Assembly: GCF_005281615.1 (NCBI RefSeq)
Contig: NZ_SZZM01000004.1
Span: 1-64,000 of the forward strand
Direction of reading: 5' to 3'
Origin: Rhodoligotrophos defluvii
Lineage (GTDB): Bacteria > Pseudomonadota > Alphaproteobacteria > Rhizobiales > Im1
DNA length: 64,000 nt
Both the position numbers and the translations under genes were made by a program. The notes beneath the pieces were generated by a model. It made no database searches, was not told the DNA's origin, and saw nothing but the letters and a program-made list of their open reading frames with translations. Position 1 is the first letter of the stretch. The number at the start of each line of letters is the position of its first letter. Shown here one piece after another: positions 27,204 through 39,423 of this stretch.

Positions 27204-29300
27204 TCACCCCTTGTAACTCATCGCCAGCAGCGTGAGATCGTCGGACTGCTGGTGGCCGCTTTCGAACGTTCTCACCGCTTGGGCGACCGCCCGGGCCAGG
27301 TTCTGCGGATCGCGCCGCGGCGCCGCTTCGAGCGTTGCCTTCAGCCGCGCGTCCCCGAACGGCTGGTCCTCGTTGTTGAAGGCCTCCGTCACGCCGTCCG
27401 TGTAGAGCACCAGCGTGTCGCCCGGCGCAAGCCGGATCCGGCGGCTGCTGAAATCGACCCCGCTCATGACCGCCACCGCCAGATCGTCGCTGGTCGCCAG
27501 CATGGTGACCTCGCCCGACCGGCCGACAAGATAGGGCGGATTGTGCCCCGCATTCACATATTCGACCTCGCCCGTGGCCGGATCGAGCACGCAGAAGAAT
27601 AACGTCACGAACATCATTTGGTCGTTGCCGGCTGCGAGCAGCTCGTTCAGCTGGCGCACGCAGCTGGCCGGGTCGCTCTCGAACAGGGCGATCGCCTTGA
27701 GCAGCGTGCGGGCGATCGCCATGAAGAAGGCGGCCGGAACCCCCTTGCCGGACACATCCGCGATCAGAAAGGCGAAGCGGCCGTCCCGCTGCTCGAAGAA
27801 GTCATAGAAGTCGCCCCCCACTTCGCGCGCGGATTCCATGAGGCCGAAGGCTGAAAATCTCGGCCTGTCCGGAAAGTCCACCGGCAGCACCGATCGTTGC
27901 AGGTCCCGGGCGATCGCGAGCTCCTGCTGAAGGCTGGCAAGCTGCGTTTCGCGCACCAGGGCTTCGCGCAGGCGGGTGACCAGCTCCGACAGCCGCCGAT
28001 GCTGGTCTACGACCCGGCCGGACATTTGCTGAAGAACCGCTGCCAGCGGCCCGAGCTGGTCGTCCTCGCGGATGAGGCGCGCCAGCGATTGCGGTGCCGG
28101 CTCCGCGCCTTCGGCCTCGGGCGCTGCCCCGCTGGTCGCCGCCACGATGCGGCGCAGATCGGTCAGCACCTCTTCCCGCGCCCCGGGCTCGAGAGTGCTG
28201 GCGAGGTTCTCCATCTGGCGCCGCACGAAACGCTCCTGCCGGCGCCGCTGCAATTCGCGCTGGCGTCGGCTGTCGTTGAATGCGACGAGATTTGCTCTCA
28301 AGCCCTGCACCGCCGTGGCGATCTCGCCGATCTCGTCATTGCTTTCCTTGGGCAGGTCCACGCTGGTGTCGCCCCGCGACAACGCGCCCAGCACGCCGAC
28401 CGCCCGGTCCAGCGGGCGGAAGCTTTCCCGCAGATAGAGGTAAAGGCCGCCCAGCAGCAGCGCCAGCAAGCCGAGCACTCCCGCGCCGGTGATCATGGTC
28501 AGCCGGTGGAGGGCCGACAGGCTCTCCGTCGCATCTTTCACGGTGACCAGCAGCCCTGCCGAGCCCGAGGACAGATCCTGCAGCGGTATGGCCGTCACCG
28601 AGTAGAGCCGGCCATCGAGCGCTGCCTGCCGCACCGTTGCGACCCGCTGCGGCAGGTCCAGCGACAGGGCGCGCCAAAGCTCAGGCTTTGTGCCCTCCAC
28701 CAGCCGCCCGCGGGTGCTGAGCAGGAATGCGTCCGCTTCCATGGACCTGGCGAACCGCCTCAGCGCCGGTTGGGCAGAGGCGGCCAGCGCCAGCACGAAA
28801 TCACCCCCTGGCGTGGGATATTGGCGGGCCATGATCACCAGGAACCGGTCCGCGGTAATCTGCCGGATGCCGCGCGGCGCCGCCCCGGCGTGGACATTGC
28901 GGATGGTGCTGAAATCGAGCAGCCGTGGCGGCTCGGCCGCTGTCGAGCTGGCAAACAGCACCTGCCCGCTGTCATCCAGGATCTGCAGGTCCGTCAGCGT
29001 GCCGCTGGCGAAGCGCGGAATGGTCCAGCTGGTGGCCAGGCTGCGCATCTGCGGCAGGCTGCGCGCCGCGACGGCTTCCCGCAAGCCGTCGTCCGCCAGG
29101 ATCTCATCTGACAGGGTGACCAGTCTCTGGGTGTCGTCTTCCAGAATCTCGCGCCATAGCGCCGTCTGACCGAGCGTGCCGATATCCGTATAGGGAACGG
29201 CCGCCAGCCGCTCGCGCTGCATGCCTGCCGCCACCAGCCCGGCAAAGGCGAGCGCAAAGGCGAGGCTCACCAGCAGGATGATTCGGGTTCGCAGCGGCAC
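27204..29300 (-). CDS. Membrane sensor-linked SpoIIE-type protein phosphatase
   Basis: 698 residues, GTG 29300, 4 nt after the preceding stop. Residues 1-28 are a membrane helix, about 30-265 an extracytoplasmic sensor, about 270-290 a second helix and 295-345 a HAMP domain (LDRAVGVLGALSRGDTSVDL, NDEIGEIATAVQGLRA). After a coiled coil comes the PP2C_SIG domain: ELAIARDLQRSVLPVDFP, GGDFYDFFEQ, DVSGKGVPAAFFMA, and LYTDGVTEAFNNEDQPFGD. Such RsbU-like enzymes dephosphorylate STAS antagonists, here plausibly the STAS protein at 37402. Last gene of the left arm. Confidence 0.9.
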   Translation of the reverse strand: MPLRTRIILLVSLAFALAFAGLVAAGMQRERLAAVPYTDIGTLGQTALWREILEDDTQRLVTLSDEILADDGLREAVAARSLPQMRSLATSWTIPRFASGTLTDLQILDDSGQVLFASSTAAEPPRLLDFSTIRNVHAGAAPRGIRQITADRFLVIMARQYPTPGGDFVLALAASAQPALRRFARSMEADAFLLSTRGRLVEGTKPELWRALSLDLPQRVATVRQAALDGRLYSVTAIPLQDLSSGSAGLLVTVKDATESLSALHRLTMITGAGVLGLLALLLGGLYLYLRESFRPLDRAVGVLGALSRGDTSVDLPKESNDEIGEIATAVQGLRANLVAFNDSRRQRELQRRRQERFVRRQMENLASTLEPGAREEVLTDLRRIVAATSGAAPEAEGAEPAPQSLARLIREDDQLGPLAAVLQQMSGRVVDQHRRLSELVTRLREALVRETQLASLQQELAIARDLQRSVLPVDFPDRPRFSAFGLMESAREVGGDFYDFFEQRDGRFAFLIADVSGKGVPAAFFMAIARTLLKAIALFESDPASCVRQLNELLAAGNDQMMFVTLFFCVLDPATGEVEYVNAGHNPPYLVGRSGEVTMLATSDDLAVAVMSGVDFSSRRIRLAPGDTLVLYTDGVTEAFNNEDQPFGDARLKATLEAAPRRDPQNLARAVAQAVRTFESGHQQSDDLTLLAMSYKG

Positions 29301-29304
29301 GCGC

Positions 29305-31029
29305 CTACCCCGCCTGGTCTGCTTGAGGCGCGTGGGGCCTGCCGCTGCGTAGCGTCAGCACGAGCCCGACCAGCAGCAAGCCGGCGGCGACCGCCAGCAC
29401 GATGCCCAGGGGGCGCATTCCGTGAAGCCCGGCGGTGCTGAGCAGGCTCGAGCCAGCAACGAGGCCGAGCGGCAGGGCCCAGGCCGCAGCCGGCGAAACG
29501 GCCGGGAGCGCCAAATAGGCCAGCACGGTCGAGGCGAGGCCCACGCCGGCGATGAGCCCGCCGCCCACCAGGTAGCTGTCATAGCCGGGCTCGACCGGGA
29601 TCCAGACGAGAGACGCCGCCCCAAGCACCATGCCCAAGGCCACCAGGATGGTCGCCACCGACCCGCGGTCGCCGCGCGGCGACGCTGCGGCCGCCACCCC
29701 CGCCTTCACCAGTCGCGGGATGAGCAGCAGGCTTATCCCCAGGCCTGCGCCGATGAGCAGGAAGGCCATGCGCCGCCCGACCGCCTCGGCCAGTAGTCCG
29801 CCGAGCAGCGGCCCGAGGCAGGTGCCGGCCAGCAGAATGAGCAGCCAGCTTGAGCCGGGACGCTCGCGCCGATTTCGTCCCGCGAAAATCGAGCCGAGCA
29901 GCAGCCCTAGGCCCAGCCCCGCGCCCAGGCGCAGCCCGGCAAATGCCGGATAGGAACGGCTGAAGGCGATCGTCCCCGTGGCTAGCGCCGCAATGAGCAG
30001 CCCCAGGAGGCCTGCAGGCATGCGCAGCGCACCTGGCAGACGCGCGGCGGCAACGGCGGCGGCCATCACGCCGAGTACCTCCACGATGATCGGAACGGTG
30101 GGCCACCACGCCCGCGAGACAAGCGACCACTCCCGGTCGATCGCGTAATTCGCCAGCAATGGCGCAGCGGCGCAATAAACACCGACCACGGCCGCGGCCG
30201 GCCAAAGCCGCGCGCTGCTCGCGCGGCCGCCTGCCGCTGGTTCATCCTTTGAGCTGACGAGGCGCTGATGGCCGGCACCGGCGAGCAGCCGATCGACCTT
30301 GTCGCCCAAGCTGCCGTCGAAATCGATGCCCCGCACGGTCGCGGCGGCATCATCCAGGCGCCGGCTGGCGGCGCGGATCGGCTCCAGTGCCCGGTCGAGC
30401 GCCCGGAACGCCTCCACCGCCACCCCTCGGCCCGCTGTGTCGAGCCCGCCGGTCGGGAAGCGGCCGTTCTGGATGGCGAGCAGCGACTGGCCAAATCGCT
30501 GCTCGGCCGCGCGCAGATAGTAGGCGCTGAAGAGATAGAGGGCGAGGCCCGCCAGGAGGCCGCAAAGCAGGGCTGCCGCCGCCAGCGCCGCCTCCAGCCG
30601 GGAAACGAGCCAGCCGTTCAGCGGCGGCGCCGGTTCCAGCGCCACCGAACCGACCGGCTGCGCCCCCACTTGAAGGGGAAACGTCAATCCCTCCACATGG
30701 TTGGCGGTCGAATACAGCACCTTGCCCGTCGCATCGCGAATGGCGATGGCCTCGACTTGCGGCGAGCCCTCGACGATCCGCCGCAGATAGGGCTGGACCC
30801 TGTTCAGCCGATTGAGCGGTATGCCATAGCCCAAGGCCCTGTTCAGCTCGCCCGCCACGGCGCGGCCCACCGCCTCCGCCCCGGCCTGCGTGGTCTGCGC
30901 AACCATGGCCGCGCTTTCTGTCTCGGCGCCACGCAGCAGGAACAGGCCGCCGAGCCCGACGCTCATCGCGACCAGAGCGCCAAGCACCCCGGCCAGCACC
31001 ACCGGCGATGCACGCTCAAGCAGCCGCAT
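29305..31029 (-). CDS. Sensor fused to a degenerate MFS-like membrane domain
   Basis: 574 residues, ATG 31029, overlapping the upstream gene by 14 nt. Residues 10-32 are a membrane helix, 33-140 an extracytoplasmic domain with GYGIPLNRL (68-76) and VEAIAIRDATGKVLY (92-106), followed by another helix. From about residue 280 onward many membrane helices follow; the region GPLLGGLLAEAVGRRMAF aligns with the GPPIGGIIADRIGIKAAF of the 32569 protein, which is a clear MFS, but the first MFS half has lost the usual motif A. Probably a signalling derivative of a transporter. No soluble output domain. Confidence 0.7.
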   Translation of the reverse strand: MRLLERASPVVLAGVLGALVAMSVGLGGLFLLRGAETESAAMVAQTTQAGAEAVGRAVAGELNRALGYGIPLNRLNRVQPYLRRIVEGSPQVEAIAIRDATGKVLYSTANHVEGLTFPLQVGAQPVGSVALEPAPPLNGWLVSRLEAALAAAALLCGLLAGLALYLFSAYYLRAAEQRFGQSLLAIQNGRFPTGGLDTAGRGVAVEAFRALDRALEPIRAASRRLDDAAATVRGIDFDGSLGDKVDRLLAGAGHQRLVSSKDEPAAGGRASSARLWPAAAVVGVYCAAAPLLANYAIDREWSLVSRAWWPTVPIIVEVLGVMAAAVAAARLPGALRMPAGLLGLLIAALATGTIAFSRSYPAFAGLRLGAGLGLGLLLGSIFAGRNRRERPGSSWLLILLAGTCLGPLLGGLLAEAVGRRMAFLLIGAGLGISLLLIPRLVKAGVAAAASPRGDRGSVATILVALGMVLGAASLVWIPVEPGYDSYLVGGGLIAGVGLASTVLAYLALPAVSPAAAWALPLGLVAGSSLLSTAGLHGMRPLGIVLAVAAGLLLVGLVLTLRSGRPHAPQADQAG

Positions 31030-31831
31030 CGGCCTCGTCGTCCTCGTCCAGTGCGAGAATGGCCTTTGCGGTCGTGTCCATCGCCGCCACGTGCTGTGCT
31101 ATGGATGCCTTGACGCCATCCACGAGCCGCGGGAGCTCGCCGCTTGCCGGTTCCGCATCGGCGGCCACGGGCGCAGTCGAGCGAAGCCGCTCCGTCGCCC
31201 GCCGCAAGCCCTGCTCCGCCTGCCGGATGGCGAGAGCCGACAGCGCCCCCACCAGCAGCAAGGCCAGCGGGGCGGCAATGGCCAGCCTGTTCGCCAGGGC
31301 GGAGGCGATCGCGTTGCCGTGGATATCGCGGCCGGCCCCCGCTGCCGTGATCGCGACATAGCCGACCGGCTCGCCGAAGTCGTTGCGGATCGGCTCGCCG
31401 AGCACGATGTCGCCGAATTCCTCGAGTGCCCAGCGTCCGCCATTGGCGCGGCGGATCGCCTCACGCCAGGTTTCGCGGATCGGCTCGCCGATGCTGCCGC
31501 GATCGGTGTTGAACAGCGAGATGCCACTGCTGGAGAAGATCTCCACCGCCAGAATCTCCGCATTCCCCGCCCGCGCCTGCTCGACCAGGTCCTGAGCGAC
31601 TCGGATGTTTTCCAGCGGCAGGCCCAAGCTGACATTGGCCTCCACCGAGCTGCGCAGCTGGTTGAGCGCGAAATTGAGGTTCGATTCCGCCGCCATCACC
31701 CGCGAACGATCCAGGCTGCCATAGATCAGCAGCGCGCACAGCATGAGCCCCGCCACCGTCAGCAGCGACACGACGCAGACGATTTTTGCCGAAGGCGACA
31801 TGAAGGAGGCAACCAGGATGGAAAACTCCAT
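31016..31831 (-). CDS. Membrane sensor-only protein (no output domain)
   Basis: About 271 residues if ATG 31831 is used (ATG 31801 is also possible; neither has a good ribosome binding site). Helix at 17-38, extracytoplasmic domain to about 190 with LGLPLENIR (69-77) and ILAVEIFSSSGISLF (93-107), second helix about 198-217, then a short cytoplasmic tail without any known domain. It resembles the sensor parts of the three neighbouring proteins at 29305, 31933 and 32569. First gene of the leftward arm. Confidence 0.65.
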   Translation of the reverse strand: MEFSILVASFMSPSAKIVCVVSLLTVAGLMLCALLIYGSLDRSRVMAAESNLNFALNQLRSSVEANVSLGLPLENIRVAQDLVEQARAGNAEILAVEIFSSSGISLFNTDRGSIGEPIRETWREAIRRANGGRWALEEFGDIVLGEPIRNDFGEPVGYVAITAAGAGRDIHGNAIASALANRLAIAAPLALLLVGALSALAIRQAEQGLRRATERLRSTAPVAADAEPASGELPRLVDGVKASIAQHVAAMDTTAKAILALDEDDEADAAA

Positions 31832-31932
31832 TTGACGGTAGCGGATGACAGCCTCAATGTCACCGCAGGACCGAATTTCGCCACAATCGTGGTAAGCGCC
31901 CGGCGCCGGCGTGAAAGCACACCAGTGGGAAT

Positions 31933-32562
31933 ATGCTTCGCTTAGCTCTCCGCACACTGCCGCTTTTCGCGATCATCGTGAGCTTCGCGGTGGCGCTTGG
32001 CGCATATATGAATTTCAGCGGTGTCCGCGGCGCCTATACGGAGCTGATCCGCTCGCGTCTGCAAATGGTCGCCGAGGAGGTGGAGCACGACATCCTCTCC
32101 GCCACCGCCCTCGCCATTCCCTTGAGCGAGCAGACGACCTTGCCCGCCCTGCTGGCGCGCCAGGCCGCCGCCGATCCCGCCATCCTGTCGATCGATGTGG
32201 AGAGCCCCGAGGGCTCAACCCTGTTCAGCAGCGTGCCGGCCCGGGTCGGCGCACCGCATCGGCCGGACGGCCAGTCCTTTGACGTGACCAAGCCCGTCCT
32301 CAACGACTTCGGCGCGGTCATCGGCCGGGTGGTGGTCCGCTATGACCGCACCGGCATGCGCGAAGGCATCGGCAGTCTGGCGGCCGGCATTGCCGGAGAT
32401 GCGGTGCCGGCGGGGCTCATGGCCATGCTCGCCGGTAGCCTCGCCGCCTTCCTGATCATGACGCGTCTGCACGGCCGGGCGCGTCGGTTGTCCGAACCGG
32501 GTGCGCCCGACGCGGTTACCCGCGCTGGCGACGCGCTGGCTGCGATCGAGCAGAGGAGCTAG
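31933..32562 (+). CDS. Membrane sensor-only protein (mirror partner)
   Basis: 209 residues, ATG 31933. One helix (8-26), an extracytoplasmic domain with LAIPLSEQT (60-68) and ILSIDVESPEGSTLF (84-98), a second helix about 155-175 and a short cytoplasmic tail. Same plan as the divergent 31016 gene, with its start about 100 bp away on the other strand. It precedes the sensor-MFS gene by 6 nt, so both arms have the order sensor-only, sensor-MFS. Confidence 0.65.
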   Translation: MLRLALRTLPLFAIIVSFAVALGAYMNFSGVRGAYTELIRSRLQMVAEEVEHDILSATALAIPLSEQTTLPALLARQAAADPAILSIDVESPEGSTLFSSVPARVGAPHRPDGQSFDVTKPVLNDFGAVIGRVVVRYDRTGMREGIGSLAAGIAGDAVPAGLMAMLAGSLAAFLIMTRLHGRARRLSEPGAPDAVTRAGDALAAIEQRS

Positions 32563-32568
32563 CAGCCC

Positions 32569-34560
32569 ATGCACTCGATCCAGCTCAGGCTGTCGGCGGC
32601 CTTGGTGGCGGTCCTGGTGGCGGCGCTGGCGCTCATCTCCTATCAGACGACCCATCGGGCCGAGGCGCTGCTGCTGCCCGAGCTGGAGCGCAAGGCGGCA
32701 ACGGTGGCGCGCTCGGTCGGCGGCCTCATGGGCCGGGCGCTGGAGGTCGGCATCCCCGTGAGCCAGCTGCGCGGCATGGATGAGTATCTCGCGCGGATTC
32801 TCGCGACCAATGCCGACTTCTCCGCCGTGACGATCGCGGCGCCGGACGGCCGCAAGCTTTATGGGGCAGGGGAGGCTGTGGCAGCCGACCACCGCGCGGT
32901 CAGCGTTCCCGTCGGTCCGCCACAGGCACCGGCGGCCCTGGTGTCCGTGGCGCTCGACCCGGCCTTCGCGCAAAGCATCATCTACAAGATGTGGATCGAC
33001 CTCGCGATCGTCACCGTCGTCACGGCGCTGGTGGCGTTGGAACTGGTCTATATCAGCTTCGGTGCCGGCCTCTATGGCGCCATCGAGGGGGTGGAAAGCC
33101 GGGTACACGCAATCGGCCGCGGGGACCTCCGCCTGCATCCGCCCATCGAGGAGCCGAGCGAGTTCGGCCGGCTCGCCAAGCGCATCGATGCACGGCTCAC
33201 TGGGCTGAACCGCCGCTTCGCCGAACTGCGGGCCAAGCTGCTTGAGCAGGGCAGCGCTGCCGCGCAGCACGCATTGGGCAGCCTTCAGCAGCGCTTCCGG
33301 TTGGGGGAAACCGGTGCGCCGCAAGCGCTCTCGGTGATCGCAATCAGGGCGCCCCTGTTCGTCTTCATGTTCGCGGAAGAGCTGACCCGGCCCTTCCTGC
33401 CGATCTATATCGAGCAGCTGGCCTCCCCTATACCGGGCCTTTCCCCCACGCTGGTCATCAGCCTGCCCATGGTGGTGTTCCTCGCCATCGTCGCGCTCAC
33501 CCAGCCTGTCTTGGGCGGTCTGACCGAGCGCTATGGCCGCCGCCGCTCGCTCCTGTGCGGTGCGGCCTTCGGCGTGGCCGGCTACTGCGCCTCCGCCTTC
33601 GCCACCGATCTTCTCGGCCTCACCCTCGCCCGGGCGCTGTCCGCCATCGGCTTTGCCCTGGTCTTCGTCGGCGCCCAGGGTTTCGTCATCGACAATACCA
33701 GCGCGAGCCAGCGCGCGCGGGGCATGGCGGTGTTCATCGGCGCCATTTTGGTCGCCGGCCTGTGCGGGCCGCCCATCGGCGGCATCATCGCCGACCGCAT
33801 CGGCATCAAGGCGGCTTTCCTCATCGCGGGCGCCTTCGCCGGCGCAAGCCTGCTGATGGCCCTGATCTGCCTGCCGCCGGCGCCGGGCCGGGCCGCGGCC
33901 GGCCCGCCCATCAGGGCGCGCGACTTCGCCGCCACCCTGCGCTCGCCGCGGTTGACGGTGCTGTTCTTCTGCTGCGCCATGCCGGCCAAGATCCTGCTGG
34001 TTGCTCTGTGCTTCTTCCTGGTGCCGCTGCACATGAAGGACCTGGGCCAGGACCAGGCCTCCATCGGCCGCATGCTGATGATCTATCCCCTGCTCATGGT
34101 CCTGCTGGTGCCGACATTCGCGTCCCTGGCCGATCGTTGGGACCGGCGCACCGCCTTCGTCGTCGGGGGCGCCCTCATCGCTGGGCTGGGCTGCCTGCTG
34201 GTTCTGCTCGACGAGAAGAGCCTGCTGGTGATCGGTGCGACCTTGGCCTGCCTCGGCATCGGCCAGGCGGTTAGCATCGCCTCCCAATCGGCCCTGGTCG
34301 GCGAATATGGCAAGCAGCTGGCCCAGCCGGTGGGCGACGGCGCGCTCTACGGCATTTTCCGCCTGGTCGAGCGCACCGGCAACGCGCTCGGGCCGGTCAT
34401 CGCCGGGTTCCTGCTTGGGCTCTATGGCTTTGCCACGACCGTGGTGCTCATCGGCCTGATGGTGGCGGCCGGAGCGCTGATCTTCACCGTGACCGCCACC
34501 GGATTGCGCGATAGGGCGGCCAAGCCCACGCCCGATATGATTGGAGGCCACCCCGCATGA
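32569..34560 (+). CDS. Sensor-HAMP-MFS fusion protein
   Basis: 663 residues, ATG 32569. Residues 5-25 membrane helix; 26-138 extracytoplasmic domain with VGIPVSQLR (60-68) and FSAVTIAAPDGRKLY (84-98); 143-165 helix; 166-215 HAMP-like segment (GVESRVHAIGRGDLRLH, EFGRLAKRIDARLTG); about 250-650 a complete MFS with motif A LGGLTERYGRRRS and GPPIGGIIADRIG. A canonical HAMP relay joined to an intact transporter suggests ligand-gated transport or a transporter-like transmitter. The stop overlaps the binding-protein start (ATGA). Confidence 0.75.
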   Translation: MHSIQLRLSAALVAVLVAALALISYQTTHRAEALLLPELERKAATVARSVGGLMGRALEVGIPVSQLRGMDEYLARILATNADFSAVTIAAPDGRKLYGAGEAVAADHRAVSVPVGPPQAPAALVSVALDPAFAQSIIYKMWIDLAIVTVVTALVALELVYISFGAGLYGAIEGVESRVHAIGRGDLRLHPPIEEPSEFGRLAKRIDARLTGLNRRFAELRAKLLEQGSAAAQHALGSLQQRFRLGETGAPQALSVIAIRAPLFVFMFAEELTRPFLPIYIEQLASPIPGLSPTLVISLPMVVFLAIVALTQPVLGGLTERYGRRRSLLCGAAFGVAGYCASAFATDLLGLTLARALSAIGFALVFVGAQGFVIDNTSASQRARGMAVFIGAILVAGLCGPPIGGIIADRIGIKAAFLIAGAFAGASLLMALICLPPAPGRAAAGPPIRARDFAATLRSPRLTVLFFCCAMPAKILLVALCFFLVPLHMKDLGQDQASIGRMLMIYPLLMVLLVPTFASLADRWDRRTAFVVGGALIAGLGCLLVLLDEKSLLVIGATLACLGIGQAVSIASQSALVGEYGKQLAQPVGDGALYGIFRLVERTGNALGPVIAGFLLGLYGFATTVVLIGLMVAAGALIFTVTATGLRDRAAKPTPDMIGGHPA

Positions 34561-35567
34561 AGCGCCGCGACTTTCTCGGCCTTGCCCTCGCGGCCGGTGC
34601 GGCCGTGCCGGGCATCTCGCTGCCGGCCCGGGGGCAGGCGCCGGCCCCGAAGCGCATCTATCGCATCACCTATCGCGGCCGTACCGCGGTCGAGGAAGGC
34701 TTTGACGATTATCTCGCGGCCAATGGCGCCGATGTGGAGTTCATCGAGCGCGACGCCGATCGCGATCCGGCGCGCATACCCGGCTTCGTCGCCGAGCTCC
34801 GCGAACTGAAGCCCGACCTGGTCTATACCTGGGGCACGCCGGTCACCCTCGGCGTGGCCGGGCGCTACGATACGCCGGATAAGGCCAAGTACATCACTCG
34901 CATACCCATCGTCTTCGCCCTGGTCTCGGCCCCGGTGCAGGCCGGCATCGTGAAAAGCACGGAACACCCCGGCCGCAACGTCACCGGCGCGGTGCACGTG
35001 GTGCCCACCGAAACCCAGCTCCGGGCCATGCAGTCCTATCTGCCGTTCAGGAAGATCGGCGTGCTCTACACCTTGACCGAGCAAAACTCGGTGTCCATCG
35101 TCGAGGAGCTGCGCCAGCTTCAGCGCAAGCTCGGTTTCGCGCTCGTCGAACGCACCTTCAAGATGGTCGACGGCAAGCCGAGCGCCGAGGGCATCCCTGA
35201 GCTCGTGGCCGAGATCAAGGCGGAAGGCGCCGACTGGCTCTATCTCCTGCCCGATACCTTCCTCGGCACTCAATACAAGACCATCGCCCCGGTGGCGCTC
35301 GCGCAGAAGCTGCCCACCTTCGGGGCCGCGGAGCTTGCCATCCGCGAAGGCGGCGCGCTGGTGGCCCTGGTGGCTCGCTACTATTCCGTGGGCCAGCTGG
35401 CCGCCTCCAAGGCTCTGAAAATCCTTGAGCAGGGTATCCCGCCGGAGGACATTCCCATAGAAACGCTGAAGCGGTTTTCGCTGATCATTAATATGAAAGT
35501 TGCAAAGGAGTTGGATCTATATCCCCCGATTGAGATGCTGAACTATGCGGAAGTCCTGACCGGATGA
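34557..35567 (+). CDS. ABC-type substrate-binding protein (ABC_sub_bind) with Tat-like signal
   Basis: 336 residues. The N-terminus KRRDFLGLALAAGAA is a twin-arginine signal followed by a cleavable region. The body has the PF04392 pattern: ELKPDLVYTWGTPVT, IPIVFALVSAPVQAGIV, GRNVTGAVHVVPTETQ, KIGVLYTLTEQNSVS, GADWLYLLPDTFLG. No ABC permease or ATPase follows, so it more likely delivers a ligand to the sensor domains or acts as a solitary receptor. Overlaps both neighbours by 4 nt. Confidence 0.8.
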   Translation: MKRRDFLGLALAAGAAVPGISLPARGQAPAPKRIYRITYRGRTAVEEGFDDYLAANGADVEFIERDADRDPARIPGFVAELRELKPDLVYTWGTPVTLGVAGRYDTPDKAKYITRIPIVFALVSAPVQAGIVKSTEHPGRNVTGAVHVVPTETQLRAMQSYLPFRKIGVLYTLTEQNSVSIVEELRQLQRKLGFALVERTFKMVDGKPSAEGIPELVAEIKAEGADWLYLLPDTFLGTQYKTIAPVALAQKLPTFGAAELAIREGGALVALVARYYSVGQLAASKALKILEQGIPPEDIPIETLKRFSLIINMKVAKELDLYPPIEMLNYAEVLTG

Positions 35568-36265
35568 CGCTATTCATGGGGGAAGGGGAGGTGACTGCGC
35601 TTGGATATTTGCAACGGCCGGTATTGGCGTGGCGAGAAATAACCGCCGCGGATATTGCCGCCGTGCACGCGCTGCACTTGGCCGCCACCGAGGTGGTTGG
35701 CCGCCCCGATCTGATCCGGCCCGAGAGTCGGTCGTTCTTCGAGAAGATCGTTGCCGCCGCCGGCAAGATCATCGGCGTCTTCGACGAGACCGGGCTGCGC
35801 GCTTATGGGGTTCTGCAATGGGACCTCTCTTTCGAGGAAGACCCCTATGGCCCGCTTGGCCTCGGCCCTGGGGACGGCTTGGCCAAGCTGGCGGGCACGG
35901 CGGTGCGGCCGAGCGCCTGGGGCCAGGGCCTGCACCGGCAGCTGATCGCCTGGCGCATTATCGAGGCAAGGAGGCTCGGCTTCCGCCACCTCTATGCGAC
36001 CTCCGCCCCGGGCAACGCCCGCAGCTGGACCAATCTGATGGATGAAGGCTTTCGCGTCCGGGCGGTCAAGGAGCAGTATGGCGGTCATCTGCGCTACCTG
36101 CTGGCCCGGCCGGTGGATAAGCAGGCCGATGCAGATACGAACGGCGATTGGTGCGAAGTGGCGGATATCGGGCGCCAGCGCGACCTGATCGCCTCAGGCC
36201 GCGAAGGGGCCGCCTGGCGCGCTGGCAAGGACGGTCACGCCATCTTGTATGTGCCGCGGCCATGA
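35564..36265 (+). CDS. GNAT-family N-acetyltransferase
   Basis: 233 residues, ATG 35564 overlapping the previous stop. The acetyl-CoA site is visible as AVRPSAWGQGLHRQLIAWRI, followed by HLYATSAPGNARSWTNLMDE and GFRVRAVKEQYGGHLRYLL. Residues 190-233 add a small C-terminal region. Because it is coupled to the binding protein and to the racemase-like gene, an amino-acid or amino-sugar substrate is plausible, but not shown. Confidence 0.75.
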   Translation: MTLFMGEGEVTALGYLQRPVLAWREITAADIAAVHALHLAATEVVGRPDLIRPESRSFFEKIVAAAGKIIGVFDETGLRAYGVLQWDLSFEEDPYGPLGLGPGDGLAKLAGTAVRPSAWGQGLHRQLIAWRIIEARRLGFRHLYATSAPGNARSWTNLMDEGFRVRAVKEQYGGHLRYLLARPVDKQADADTNGDWCEVADIGRQRDLIASGREGAAWRAGKDGHAILYVPRP

Positions 36266-37419
36266 CCGTCATGGCCGCCACACGTCCGCCCCACACCCCG
36301 CTCGACACGCTGCTGCGCGCGGGCCCGGTCCTCGAAATCGACCTGGACCGCATCGCCGCCAATTATCGCGCCTTGCGCCGGCGCTATGCCGGGCGAATCC
36401 TCTCCGCTGTGGTGAAGAACAACGGCTACGGCCTCGGCATCGCGGCCCTGGTCGAGACGTTGACCGCCGAGGGCTGCACGCACTTCTGGGTGCTGGATCT
36501 CGCCGAAGCGGCCATGGTCAAGCAGGCCGCACCCCAGGCGGAGGTATTCACCCTGCACGGCCTGCAGGGCGAATCGGCCGCAACCTTCGCGGCCACCGAT
36601 ATCACGCCGGTGCTGCTGAGCCTGGACGAGGTGGAGCGCTGCGTGGCCGAAGCGCGCCGCACCGGCCGAAAGCTTGGCGTTGCCGTTCAGCTCGACACCG
36701 GTCTCGGCCGGCTGGGCCTGGACGAGGCGGATATTCGCCGCCTCGCCGCGCGGCGCAACCAGCTGGAGGCGCTCGACGTAAAGGCCTGGGTCACTCACCT
36801 CGCCGCCTTCGATCTGCCCGATGCGGAAAGCAACCGCGCCCAGCGCGAGTGCCTGCGGCGCTGGCTGCGCGGCCTGCCCGCCGCGCCTGTCAGCCTCGCA
36901 TCATCTGCCGGGCTGTACATGGGCCCGGACTGGCATTTCGATATCGCCCGGGTGGGCAGCGCCCTCTATGGCGTGCAGACCTCGACCGCCTGGCAGGACG
37001 GGCTTGCGGTGTGCTATCGCCTCTCAGCACCCATCCTGCGCATCAACAACGCCGCGCGAGGCGCGCGGATCGGTTACCGCGGCACCACCTGTCTCCGCCG
37101 GCCGTCCCTGATCGCCACCGCCATGATCGGCTATGGTAACGGCCTGCCTCAGGCCTTCGCGGCCCATGGCGCCGCCCGTATAGGCGAATGCCAGCTCCCC
37201 GTCGTCGGCGGCATCGCCATGAACCTGACCATGCTGGACGCAACCGACGCGCCGACCGCGTGCGTTCAAGTAGGGGAAAGGGCAGTCTTCCTCGACGAGC
37301 GCCACACGGTGGATCAACTCGCCGCCAGACTTGGCTGCGCGCCCAACGCGGTGCTGACCCAGATCGGCGCCGGCACCCGCCGGATCTATGTGAGGAACGG
37401 CTTACCCGCGGAGGTCTGA
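36262..37419 (+). CDS. Divergent alanine racemase-like PLP enzyme
   Basis: 385 residues, ATG 36262 overlapping the previous stop. PLP lysine is in VVKNNGYGLG (K52, Y56). QLDTGLGRLG and ARVGSALYGV match the family, and IGYRGT keeps the second catalytic tyrosine near residue 271. Near residue 313, GGIAMNLTMLDA replaces the usual GR-x-S/C-MD motif, changing the conserved Asp to Asn and an Arg to Gly. It could be a racemase of another amino acid or a sensor-like paralogue. Its end overlaps the convergent STAS gene by 18 nt. Confidence 0.75.
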   Translation: MTVMAATRPPHTPLDTLLRAGPVLEIDLDRIAANYRALRRRYAGRILSAVVKNNGYGLGIAALVETLTAEGCTHFWVLDLAEAAMVKQAAPQAEVFTLHGLQGESAATFAATDITPVLLSLDEVERCVAEARRTGRKLGVAVQLDTGLGRLGLDEADIRRLAARRNQLEALDVKAWVTHLAAFDLPDAESNRAQRECLRRWLRGLPAAPVSLASSAGLYMGPDWHFDIARVGSALYGVQTSTAWQDGLAVCYRLSAPILRINNAARGARIGYRGTTCLRRPSLIATAMIGYGNGLPQAFAAHGAARIGECQLPVVGGIAMNLTMLDATDAPTACVQVGERAVFLDERHTVDQLAARLGCAPNAVLTQIGAGTRRIYVRNGLPAEV

Positions 37420-37737
37420 GGCCGCCGCCTCCGCGTCCGGATAGATCTTGAACAGCTTGGCGAAGCCGCTGATGGTGAACACTTCCTTAACCGCCGGGCT
37501 CATGCCGGCCAGGGCGAGAGCCGCCCCCTTGGCTTTGCTTTGCTTTGCCGCCATCAGCAGCACCCGCAGGCCCGCGCTCGAAATATAGGTCAGCCGCGAG
37601 AAATCGACGATGACCTTGCCGCCACCGTCAAAGGCCGGCAACAGAACCGCCTCCAGATCGCGCGCCGTGTTGCTGTCCACACGCCCGACCGGCGCGATGA
37701 TGCCGATCCCGTCGCGCTCTTCGCGGTTGATCTCCAT
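37402..37737 (-). CDS. STAS-domain anti-anti-sigma-like protein
   Basis: 111 residues; ATG 37737 follows GGAGAG, GTG 37740 is an alternative. Residues 10-60 have IGIIAPVGRVDSNTARDLEA, and KVIVDFSRLTYISSAGLRVL holds the phosphorylatable serine in the SSAGLR motif, the site used by SpoIIAA and RsbV. Being directly downstream of a protein with an RsbW-like ATPase (24-bp gap) and near a SpoIIE phosphatase, it is the expected antagonist of a partner switch. No sigma factor gene is visible in the window. Confidence 0.85.
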   Translation of the reverse strand: MEINREERDGIGIIAPVGRVDSNTARDLEAVLLPAFDGGGKVIVDFSRLTYISSAGLRVLLMAAKQSKAKGAALALAGMSPAVKEVFTISGFAKLFKIYPDAEAAASDLRG

Positions 37738-37761
37738 CACGCTCTCCTCATCCTCCTGTCC

Positions 37762-39423
37762 TCAGGTGCGCTCGCCGACGACCTTGGTGAGTCGCACCTC
37801 GTTGCGGCCGTTGCGCCGCTCATAGTCGATGCGGTCCATCATCTCCCGCACCAGGTGAACCCCGAGCCCGCCGATCGCGCGCTCGTCCAGCTCGGCTTCC
37901 AGATCCGGCGCGGGTGTCTCCCGCGGGTCGTAGGGCGCCGCATCGTCGCTCACATGCACCGTCAACACGCCGCCGCCGAGCCTCAAGCCCACCTCGATCC
38001 AGTGGGCTTCACCGTCGTCATAGCCGTAGCTGATGGTGTTGGTGATGAGTTCGTCCAGCGAGAGGTTCACGGCGTGGGCAATGTCCGGCCCCAGCCCATG
38101 CCCCTGACAGAACGCATCCACCTTGCGCGCCAGCACCTCGATTTCGGCGACGTCGTTGCGGATCGTGGCGTGCAGGCTCGGCGGAACGGACTGATCGGAC
38201 ACGGAAGGCCTTTCCACATCTCCCGGCAAGGCCGCACGACTGAGGTCGATCACGCGATAGATCGCCTCACGCCCGAACCGCTTCGGAAGCTCGACCGAGC
38301 CATGATACTCCACCGCATAGCGCGGGGAATAGGGGGTGCCCGTCATCGCCGCCTCGTAGAGCCGCTCGTCGATTTCCGCCCGCAGCAGCGCCACGAAATG
38401 CTGGGAAGCGAAGATCTGCCCTGGCAGCGCCACCGGCTCGATCCGTGCCGCCCGGTTCACGTGGTGGCCGAAGATCATGCTGCGCCCGGTCATCGGGTGC
38501 AGCCCGATGAACACCGGGCCCGCATGCAGGGCGATGCGGAACCGAGGCGCCCGCGCCAGTCCATAGCGGGCCGGGTCAATTTCGGCCACGGCGTGCGACA
38601 GCGCCGCGGCATAATCCGCAAGGTCATGCGCCGTCTCGGCAGCGGCATGGATCGCATCGCCCCAGGTGTTGATCAGCAGCGGCGGCCGGCAGGCGTCCTC
38701 CACCATCTGCTGTGCCTCCCCCAAAAGGTCGAACAGCAGCGGGATCTCGTCGTCGCGGAAATTGGTATAGGTGGCGATATCGGCGAACAGGATCGCTCGG
38801 ATGGCGCGCGGGCTGATGCCGAGGTCGGAGGCCAGCGGATCCAGCTCGGCAGGGCTGGCGGCCGCTTCCGAACCGCCGAGCTCGTCCAGGTCGATGATCG
38901 ACAGCCGGTCGAGCTCCGGCCAATGATCCATGAAATCCGCCGGGCTGCCCAGCTCCGCCACGGCGCTGGGGCTCCACAGCAGCAGCAGGTGGGCGGTGGT
39001 GCCCACAGCCTCCGCCTCCAGCCGCGCGAGGCCCTGCAGCACCTGATTGTTGAAGCGGATCAGGGTTGGGTCGCCCAGCAGCCGTTCCTCGCAGTTGACG
39101 TTGAAGGTCGCCGCCCGCGCGCACAGCCGCTCGAACCGCTCGACCCAGGCGTGCCCGGCCGGTGCCACATACTGGTCGATGAAGTCCTGGCGCTCGCAGG
39201 GAATATGAATGTTGAGCTTGCCGCCAAGCGCAACCACCGCCTCGCCGAACAGGATGTCGCCGCCTGCCGTCGCCGAGGCATAGCCGATGAGCGGTCCGGC
39301 CCCCTCGAGATGCGACCGGATCGCCGCCTGCGCCGCCGCCTCCAGCGACGCTGGAAACGGCCCGGGCTGGTCCTCGGCATTCACGCGCTGCCCGGCGAAC
39401 AGTATGATCTTGGGTGCAGTCAT
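37762..39423 (-). CDS. SLOG-like / class III nucleotidyl cyclase / RsbW-like ATPase fusion
   Basis: 553 residues, ATG 39423. Residues 1-180 resemble a SLOG/TIR-like Rossmann module (IILFAGQRV, SATAGGDILFGEAVVALGGK). Residues 205-350 are a class III cyclase: AILFADIATYTNF (Asp214), INTWGDAIHAAA (Asp256) and MIFGHHVNRAARIE. Residues about 425-553 form a HATPase domain of the RsbW/SpoIIAB type: the N-box NLSLDELITNTISYGYDDG, then HVSDDAAPYDP and AIGGLGVHLVREMMD. The combination couples a nucleotide signal to a switch kinase. It precedes the STAS gene on the same strand. Confidence 0.8.
   Translation of the reverse strand: MTAPKIILFAGQRVNAEDQPGPFPASLEAAAQAAIRSHLEGAGPLIGYASATAGGDILFGEAVVALGGKLNIHIPCERQDFIDQYVAPAGHAWVERFERLCARAATFNVNCEERLLGDPTLIRFNNQVLQGLARLEAEAVGTTAHLLLLWSPSAVAELGSPADFMDHWPELDRLSIIDLDELGGSEAAASPAELDPLASDLGISPRAIRAILFADIATYTNFRDDEIPLLFDLLGEAQQMVEDACRPPLLINTWGDAIHAAAETAHDLADYAAALSHAVAEIDPARYGLARAPRFRIALHAGPVFIGLHPMTGRSMIFGHHVNRAARIEPVALPGQIFASQHFVALLRAEIDERLYEAAMTGTPYSPRYAVEYHGSVELPKRFGREAIYRVIDLSRAALPGDVERPSVSDQSVPPSLHATIRNDVAEIEVLARKVDAFCQGHGLGPDIAHAVNLSLDELITNTISYGYDDGEAHWIEVGLRLGGGVLTVHVSDDAAPYDPRETPAPDLEAELDERAIGGLGVHLVREMMDRIDYERRNGRNEVRLTKVVGERT

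What the first reader, a model, noticed from the sequence alone, without database searches (positions are those of the whole stretch)
27204..39423. Mirror-image sensor locus wired to a partner-switching module
Seen: two divergent arms start about 100 bp apart. Each begins with a sensor-only membrane protein, followed by a sensor fused to an MFS-like domain. All four sensor regions share the pattern [GA]-[IL]-P-[LV]-x-x-[LIQT] and, about 25 residues on, a strand of the type I-x-[VI]-x4-G-x-x-L-[FY]. The left arm adds a SpoIIE phosphatase. The right arm adds a binding protein, a GNAT and a racemase-like enzyme. A converging operon adds a cyclase/RsbW-like fusion and a STAS protein. Known: SpoIIE-type phosphatase, STAS and RsbW-type kinase form partner switches. 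Inferred: the locus is one signalling system in which sensors and transporter-like proteins control the switch.
Basis: partly seen in the sequence, partly recalled or inferred. Interest (0 to 1): 0.88.

Follow-up and report, generated by a model that had tools for sequence, protein, structure and literature searches.

The report
Sensor-exporter locus driving a cyclase switch
A conserved bacterial gene set links small outside-the-cell sensors, partly built into an exporter-like protein, to a protein phosphate switch that most likely turns on a cyclic-nucleotide-making enzyme; the chemistry is still untested.

Summary
Two divergent arms start 101-131 bp apart, each with a sensor-only protein and a sensor-MFS protein; left adds SpoIIE, right adds an SBP, GNAT and alanine-racemase homologue; STAS and a cyclase-HATPase protein converge. 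The four sensor regions are one family (hhalign 98.4-99.9%) with a WalK/CitA-like Cache/PAS fold (pLDDT 91.6). In the own genome the family's only four matches, the only SpoIIE, the only strong RsbW-type ATPase and the only short STAS lie here. Of 54 sensor-bearing loci in Alpha-, Beta- and Gammaproteobacteria 52 carry the SBP, 45 SpoIIE, 40 HATPase, 33 STAS; 10 sensor-less MFS loci carry none. It is fused to the HATPase here, a PAS-cyclase adjoins SpoIIE in seven relatives, and in two genomes the SpoIIE protein's own sensor half is fused to a cyclase instead, with no STAS or HATPase found in those 20 kb. Model: ligand, Cache/MFS complex, SpoIIE, STAS/HATPase, cyclic nucleotide. Biochemistry, ligand, product and direction are untested; most loci show no cyclase. 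New variant of partner switching.

The parts
27204..29300 (-). SpoIIE/PP2C phosphatase with periplasmic sensor and HAMP (P0001, 698 aa, GTG start)
   Evidence: PF07228 7.5e-54, HAMP 1.9e-8, dCache_3 only 0.088; only SpoIIE-family match in the own genome
29305..31029 (-). left-arm sensor fused to an atypical MFS-like domain (P0002, 574 aa)
   Evidence: no Pfam match; TIGR00880 7.7e-7; about 11 distinct hydrophobic segments; sensor family by hhalign
31016..31831 (-). left-arm sensor-only two-TM membrane protein (P0003); start at 31831 or 31801 not settled
   Evidence: left-arm group support 100/99
31832..31932 (.). 101-bp divergent intergenic region (131 bp if the left arm starts at 31801)
31933..32562 (+). 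right-arm sensor-only two-TM membrane protein (P0004, 209 aa), single Cache/PAS fold
   Evidence: AlphaFold pLDDT 91.6, pTM 0.73; Foldseek WalK 6.2e-7, KinD 9e-4, CitA 1.1e-3, DcuS 3.4e-3
32569..34560 (+). right-arm sensor-HAMP-MFS fusion (P0005, 663 aa)
   Evidence: MFS_1 9.5e-51, HAMP 0.0056 below cut-off; closest NCBIfam models are drug-efflux MFS families, all below their cut-offs
34557..35567 (+). PF04392 binding protein, possible Tat signal (P0006, 336 aa)
   Evidence: PF04392 5.3e-37, TAT_signal 0.042 below cut-off; the more divergent of two PF04392 proteins in the genome; none of the ten genes is an ABC permease or ATPase
35564..36265 (+). GNAT acetyltransferase (P0007, 233 aa)
   Evidence: Acetyltransf_1 5.4e-5, above cut-off
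36262..37419 (+). alanine-racemase homologue (P0008, 385 aa)
   Evidence: PF01168 1.7e-50, PF00842 1.3e-21; the more divergent of two racemases of the genome
37402..37740 (-). stand-alone STAS protein (P0009, 112 aa); phosphoacceptor-position Ser kept (YISSAGL)
   Evidence: STAS 2.9e-21; alignment to SpoIIAA chains 1th8_B and 1tid_B; the other two STAS matches of the genome are in 603- and 628-aa frames
37762..39423 (-). N-terminal Rossmann-like (possibly SLOG) domain - class III cyclase - RsbW/SpoIIAB-type HATPase (P0010, 553 aa)
   Evidence: HATPase_c_2 2.4e-24, Guanylate_cyc 2.8e-9; model of modest confidence, pLDDT 74.3, pTM 0.42, 9 sequences; Foldseek SpoIIAB 1.6e-8, Rv1900c 2.1e-4, DprA 1.2e-3

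Best explanation
One membrane signalling module. Small periplasmic Cache sensors (two stand-alone, two carried on MFS proteins), together with a periplasmic binding protein, read an outside ligand and perhaps the state of an exporter-type MFS (inferred). This sets the activity of the SpoIIE phosphatase, which has its own periplasmic sensor (inferred; sensor-SpoIIE fusions in relatives support contact). SpoIIE removes phosphate from the STAS protein and the RsbW-type HATPase domain puts it back (family knowledge; residues and folds shown, reaction not). Unphosphorylated STAS binds the HATPase and releases or activates the cyclase fused to it, so the output is a cyclic nucleotide (inferred from fusion, neighbourhood and a domain swap), by the same logic as SiaC activating the diguanylate cyclase SiaD.
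For: Co-conservation: of 54 sensor-bearing loci SBP 52, sensor-only 51, SpoIIE 45, HATPase 40, GNAT 40, STAS 33; 0 of 10 in sensor-less Azospirillum MFS loci. By exclusion the switch partners are each other's: one SpoIIE, one strong HATPase_c_2, one short STAS in the genome, all first-look candidates scored. Residues: STAS Ser at G-2 in 43 of 43 rows; four PP2C patterns in 49, 48, 29 and 45 of 49 rows; cyclase keeps both metal Asp and the N/R pair. Output: cyclase fused to the HATPase in the window and relatives; PAS-cyclase beside SpoIIE in 7 loci (one, L056, Pfam-confirmed); a further cyclase-like ORF after HATPase/STAS in L150. Domain swap: L153 has the P0001 sensor half (35% over 454 residues) fused to PF00211 at 4.3e-19, with no STAS or HATPase in its whole 20 kb, and L154 likewise. 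Independent set: L178 and L179 carry SpoIIE-HATPase, STAS and a P0010-like cyclase, 41% over 396 residues for L178. Precedent: SiaABCD (PMC7647112, PMC8457831; abstracts read).
Against: 39 of 54 loci show neither of the two cyclase kinds scored, so the output may differ there. The window cyclase lacks the usual base-choosing pair (N/M), so it may be inactive or make something unusual. Of 13 other genomes with a relative of the N-terminal-cyclase part, 2 have SpoIIE and STAS beside it and 11 do not, over their whole fetched regions. The two swap genomes do encode other SpoIIE proteins elsewhere (4 and 1 matches), so a switch is not gone from them. Of 20 further sensor regions fetched, 11 have no SpoIIE. 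No biochemical test; direction of control not shown.
Confidence: 0.6

Rival explanations
1. The flow runs the other way: the switch controls transport. The MFS, SBP and enzymes are the target, and the Cache domains on the MFS are regulatory gates set by the switch.
For: L178 and L179 carry a cyclic-nucleotide-binding domain fused to a Na/sulphate-type transporter in the same run of genes as SpoIIE-HATPase, STAS and cyclase. A Na/Pi-cotransporter-like gene lies between HATPase and a STAS gene in 9 Xanthobacter/Azorhizobium loci and just upstream of the sensor-MFS gene in 3 Beta loci (one, L064, Pfam-confirmed).
Against: The recurrent sensor-only proteins and the sensor-SpoIIE fusions fit sensing input better; Cache domains are extracytoplasmic and hard to reach from a cytoplasmic switch (family knowledge); the left-arm MFS half is missing in six proteins checked while the sensor stays.
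Confidence: 0.2
2. Classical anti-sigma switch: the HATPase holds a sigma factor and STAS releases it, so the output is transcription.
For: The HATPase fold is closest to SpoIIAB and RsbW; STAS aligns best with SpoIIAA-type proteins.
Against: The HATPase is fused to a cyclase here; in L153 and L154 a cyclase stands in the SpoIIE position with no STAS or HATPase nearby. I recognised no sigma factor among the recurring neighbour clusters printed, but sigma factors were not searched for as such, most of those clusters were not scanned, and a cognate sigma gene need not lie nearby.
Confidence: 0.12
3. Two unrelated neighbours: an amino-acid efflux operon beside a signalling operon.
For: Racemase and GNAT presence varies (19 and 40 of 54); the Gamma loci L077, L079-L082, L084, L086 and L087 show neither.
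Against: Shared sensor family across both arms, kept as separate groups; fusions; conservation across three classes; 0 of 10 in the control.
Confidence: 0.04

Closest known systems
SiaABCD of Pseudomonas aeruginosa (PMC7647112, PMC8457831; abstracts and outlines read)
   Same: PP2C phosphatase, a kinase and an anti-sigma-antagonist-like protein form a partner switch whose end is a nucleotide cyclase (SiaD); P0001 matches the SiaA model at 2.5e-23.
   Different: P0001 scores 82.5 bits against the SiaA cut-off of 700, best in the phosphatase half; the abstract gives threonine 68 as the SiaC site, the STAS here has Ser; the cyclase is class III and fused to the kinase; added Cache sensors, MFS, SBP, GNAT and racemase genes.
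RbaV/RbaW/RbaY of Rhodobacter capsulatus (PMC3999984; abstract and outline read)
   Same: Alphaproteobacterial RsbV/W/Y-like partner switch for which no sigma factor was identified.
   Different: No sensor-MFS, SBP or cyclase partner is mentioned in that abstract.
SpoIIAA/SpoIIAB/SpoIIE and RsbV/RsbW/RsbU of Bacillus (function recalled; folds and sequences matched)
   Same: STAS, HATPase kinase and PP2C phosphatase of the same families.
   Different: Output there is a sigma factor (recalled).
WalK, CitA, DcuS and KinD sensor domains
   Same: Extracytoplasmic Cache/PAS fold between two TM helices.
   Different: Those are histidine kinases; here stand-alone or fused to MFS.
LuxP/LuxQ-type binding protein plus sensor (recalled, not tested)
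   Same: A periplasmic binding protein next to a periplasmic sensor.
   Different: LuxQ is a histidine kinase (recalled); contact between P0006 and the sensors is only inferred.

Membership tests
Partner-switching module | PP2C/SpoIIE phosphatase domain | tested here: met
   PF07228 7.5e-54; four signature patterns in 49, 48, 29 and 45 of 49 homologue rows and visible in P0001
Partner-switching module | RsbW/SpoIIAB-type serine-kinase HATPase | tested here: met
   PF13581 2.4e-24; Foldseek SpoIIAB 1.6e-8
Partner-switching module | Stand-alone STAS with phosphoacceptor Ser/Thr | tested here: met
   alignment; Ser at G-2 in 43 of 43 STAS rows printed
Partner-switching module | Phosphorylation-dependent exchange of partners | not testable with these tools
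   needs purified proteins
SiaABCD | SiaA equivalog score | tested here: not met
   82.5 bits against a cut-off of 700
Anti-sigma system | Cognate sigma factor | not tested
   sigma factors were not searched for
Class III nucleotide cyclase | Fold, two metal-binding Asp and the N/R pair | tested here: met
   PF00211 2.8e-9; D215, D256 and R327 invariant and N323 nearly so in 11 sequences (roles of these residues recalled)
Class III nucleotide cyclase | Base-choosing pair (K and D/T, or E and C; recalled) | tested here: not met
   N and M in the window protein
Single Cache/PAS periplasmic sensor | Fold between two TM helices | tested here: met
   pLDDT 91.6, Foldseek, two TM segments; Pfam Cache models are weak, 0.021 for P0003 and none for P0004
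MFS transporter (P0005) | MFS_1 profile | tested here: met
   9.5e-51; about 10 distinct hydrophobic segments after the sensor by simple hydropathy
MFS transporter (P0002) | MFS_1 profile | tested here: not met
   no Pfam match; TIGR00880 7.7e-7 below its cut-off
SLOG domain (P0010 N-terminus) | SLOG/DprA-like Rossmann fold | tested here: inconclusive
   whole-model Foldseek matches to DprA at 1.2e-3 and ShosA at 2.4e-3; no Pfam match in this region

The most novel reading that the evidence does not exclude
A self-signalling circuit: the racemase and GNAT (in relatives a D-Ala-D-Ala-ligase-like or dapdiamide-synthase-like ATP-grasp enzyme) make an amino-acid-derived signal, the sensor-bearing MFS exports it, the binding protein and Cache sensors read it back, and the SpoIIE/STAS/HATPase switch turns it into an unusual cyclic nucleotide made by a cyclase with non-standard base choice.
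Probability: 0.18. Interest if true: 0.92.

Novelty: new variant of a known kind. Interest (0 to 1): 0.72.

Why it matters
It would be a sensing system in which sensor domains sit on an exporter-like protein and on twin stand-alone proteins and act through a phosphate switch instead of a histidine kinase. The domain swap in L153/L154 gives a direct reason to look for a cyclic nucleotide as the end product, which makes the question of what Gram-negative partner switches without a known sigma factor control testable in named strains that carry the module, such as Chelatococcus asaccharovorans (L042), Xanthobacter autotrophicus (L059) or Thalassospira lucentensis (L074).

Tried and rejected
Chance motif: rejected. 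Motif as the family's mark: rejected, only part of the homologues keep it. Scattered homologues: rejected. P0008 as the housekeeping alanine racemase: unlikely, a closer match to the family lies elsewhere in the genome. The P0010-like cyclase as a general partner of SpoIIE/STAS: not supported, 2 of 13 other genomes (at most 4 candidates scored per genome). TAL-effector matches of the HATPase stretch: rejected as sums of very short repeat matches; only RsbW (0.0039) is meaningful. Alignment A5 was poorly aligned and not used. An NDFG motif was looked at: 10 of 33 and 13 of 56 in sensor-only, 0 of 62 and 0 of 37 in sensor-MFS; suggestive only. Literature: eight searches; the rows listed (in one search 8 of 16, 11 of 12 and 12 of 518 papers) showed none on this gene set by title or abstract start; open-licence library only. 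Three papers were opened, outline and abstract only.

Rows dropped before counts. One search flagged 64 of 65 loci as sensor-MFS; I dropped 10 Azospirillum loci (L088-L093, L096, L097, L104, L105), which one search shows as MFS only, and used them as the control; the flag was fooled by a profile that spans MFS. L103 is an unrelated MFS. One search recounts the 54 left. They are not independent: nine are Xanthobacter, and some (L047, L053, L065, L099) are cut by contig ends. In the tree the two L035 rows were left out because L035 is the same locus as L051 (87 of 89 rows used). L098's gene in the kinase position was not scanned. Of the 17 partial P0001 matches I looked at the surroundings of 4 (G488, G514, G213, G585).
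Full report
What is there. Ten genes fill 27204-39423. Two divergent arms begin 101 bp apart (131 bp if the left arm starts at 31801). Each starts with a sensor-only two-TM protein and continues with a sensor-MFS protein; the left arm ends in SpoIIE (P0001), the right arm continues with a PF04392 binding protein, a GNAT and an alanine-racemase homologue. STAS and a three-domain protein (N-terminal domain, class III cyclase, RsbW-type HATPase) converge on them. The four sensors carry the reported motif pair (second motif with I or V first) at an identical spacing of 26 residues; no other of 198 ORFs has it, and 1 of 8000 shuffles does.

The sensors. Profile comparison of the four sensor sets gives 98.4-99.9% probability in all six pairings; the SpoIIE sensor is only weakly related (47-78%). 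P0004 is modelled at pLDDT 91.6 and matches WalK (6.2e-7), KinD, CitA and DcuS sensor domains (4 matches at E of 0.001 or better), so it is a single Cache/PAS domain. In a tree of 87 sensor-only rows, rooted at the midpoint for drawing only, 38 left-arm rows (100/99) and 32 right-arm rows (100/98) are separate groups; 17 other rows, mostly single-arm sensors of Gamma and Rhodospirillales, lie between them. One left-position sensor, L067, falls outside the left group on a long branch. So the arms most likely come from an old duplication and both are kept. In the own genome the sensor profile finds four places at E of 0.001, all in this locus, with 119 of 119 candidates scored. In the class, 39 of 289 genomes have a match at 1e-5, with at most 10 candidates scored each.

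Conservation. A scan with the P0005 alignment gave 65 loci. After setting aside L103 and 10 Azospirillum loci without sensor, 54 remain: SBP 52, sensor-only 51, SpoIIE 45, HATPase 40, GNAT 40, left-arm sensor-MFS or its truncated form 35, STAS 33, racemase 19, cyclase 15 (8 of the window kind, 7 PAS-cyclases). The Azospirillum loci have none of these (0 of 10). Nine loci lack a SpoIIE hit: L047 and L099 are cut by contig ends (L099 shows the start of the SpoIIE sensor part); L066, L072, L073 and L082 carry sensor, sensor-MFS and SBP (L072 also GNAT); in L095 and L101 a Ser/Thr-kinase-Cache protein stands beside the module; L098 was not scanned. The mirror-image order is in 28 of 54 (read), counting near-copies. 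Same-genus genomes G001 and G002 carry all ten genes in mirror order. Reverse test: P0001 against 398 genomes of the phylum (E of 1e-40, 2 candidates scored per genome) gave 21 matches; the four full-length ones are all in the module, the 17 others begin at residue 392 or later.

Sensors without the switch. Of 20 regions fetched for sensor matches in the class, 7 have a SpoIIE hit (L146-L148, L150-L152 and, weakly, L155), 2 have a cyclase in its place (L153, L154) and 11 have neither SpoIIE, STAS nor HATPase by these profiles. The 11 are sensor-SBP pairs (L136, L137, L138, L149), sensor-MFS loci with SBP (L139-L143, L145) and a sensor on a histidine kinase (L144). So the input part is older or wider than the switch.

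The switch. In the own genome P0001 is the only SpoIIE, P0010 the only strong HATPase_c_2 (5.7e-25; the next is 3.1e-9) and P0009 the only short STAS of three matches; all candidates were scored. In 8 of 8 genomes searched the best SpoIIE and the best HATPase_c_2 lie in the module by coordinates; 5 of the 8 have further SpoIIE matches. STAS aligns with SpoIIAA chains; chain 1tid_B, which I recall as the S58A mutant, has its A opposite the second serine of YISSAGL. The HATPase part folds like SpoIIAB/RsbW, in a model of modest confidence (pLDDT 74.3, pTM 0.42).

Fusions. Sensor-only plus sensor-MFS in one protein in Beta loci L067, L068, L071, L075, L085, L094, L095 and L100 (L046, L060, L061 and L065 in that list are ORFs extended upstream). 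Sensor plus SpoIIE in L067 and, by domain hits, L148. SpoIIE plus HATPase in L080, L084, L087, L178 and L180 and L179. In six left-arm proteins checked from Xanthobacter, Azorhizobium and Beta loci only the two sensor TM segments remain, so the MFS half is not needed in the left arm.

The output. In the window the HATPase is fused to a cyclase; in seven other loci a PAS-cyclase sits beside SpoIIE (Pfam for L056), with T at one base-choosing site in 7 of 7 and K at the other in 6 of 7 lines printed. In L153 and L154 the protein in the SpoIIE position keeps the P0001 sensor half (35% over 454 residues for L153) but ends in a cyclase (PF00211 4.3e-19 for L153; L154 by sequence) with the K/T pair that I recall from class IIIb adenylate cyclases, and no STAS or HATPase is found in the whole 20 kb of either. 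The simplest reading is that the relay phosphatase, STAS, HATPase, cyclase has been replaced by a direct sensor-cyclase; but these genomes do have other SpoIIE proteins elsewhere. L178 and L179 carry SpoIIE-HATPase, STAS and a P0010-like cyclase next to a PF04392 protein and a transporter fused to a cyclic-nucleotide-binding domain. A cyclase-like ORF also follows HATPase and STAS in L150, a cyclase-TPR gene lies downstream of SpoIIE-HATPase and two STAS genes in L180, and a dCache-cyclase adjoins the sensor-MFS/SBP genes of L143. Against: 39 of 54 loci have neither cyclase kind scored, 11 of 13 other genomes with a P0010-like cyclase have no switch beside it, and the window cyclase has N and M at the base-choosing sites.

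The input chemistry. The MFS part of P0005 is nearest to drug-efflux models, all below their cut-offs, which suggests export. PF04392 relatives with solved structures were matched; I recall them as aromatic-amino-acid binders. Some relatives carry D-Ala-D-Ala-ligase-like or dapdiamide-synthase-like enzymes where this locus has the racemase. This fits amino-acid-type ligands, made or sensed, but no ligand is shown.

Verdict. The observation and the one-system reading are supported; the mechanism is inferred; the cyclase output is the main addition. Compared with SiaABCD (abstracts of PMC7647112 and PMC8457831) it works alike but is not a member by the SiaA score.

Noticed in passing
L178:5348-13023, L179:5471-13740: Run of a cNMP-binding domain fused to a Na/sulphate-type transporter, a PF04392 protein, SpoIIE-HATPase, STAS and a P0010-like cyclase, with no sensor-MFS; the large ORF before it looks RND-like (not scanned).
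   Followed up: partly
L153:12979-15162, L154:5257-7440: The SpoIIE protein's sensor half fused to a class III cyclase in place of the phosphatase.
   Followed up: yes
L037-L040, L141-L143: Double-sensor MFS proteins of about 770-870 aa beside a PF04392 protein; a D-Ala-D-Ala-ligase-like gene was confirmed in L037, L039, L141, L142 and L143 (L038 and L040 not scanned); neighbouring outputs seen include GGDEF-EAL (L037), histidine kinases (L039, L142) and a dCache-cyclase (L143).
   Followed up: partly
L136, L137, L138, L149: Minimal pair: a double-sensor membrane protein next to a PF04392 protein; in L136 beside a vWA/TPR gene.
   Followed up: no
L200, L202, L204, L205, L206: P0010-like cyclases near ORFs with a FISYSH-type stretch that looks TIR-like (recalled, not scanned).
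   Followed up: no
L095:6177-8744, L101:6362-8911: Ser/Thr protein kinase fused to dCache-HAMP divergently next to the sensor-MFS and SBP genes, where no SpoIIE is found.
   Followed up: partly
L057, L059-L062, L064, L070, L076, L102 (beside HATPase/STAS); L067, L068, L075 (upstream of sensor-MFS); L147: A Na/Pi-cotransporter-family gene recurs near the module; Pfam-confirmed in L064 and L147 only.
   Followed up: no
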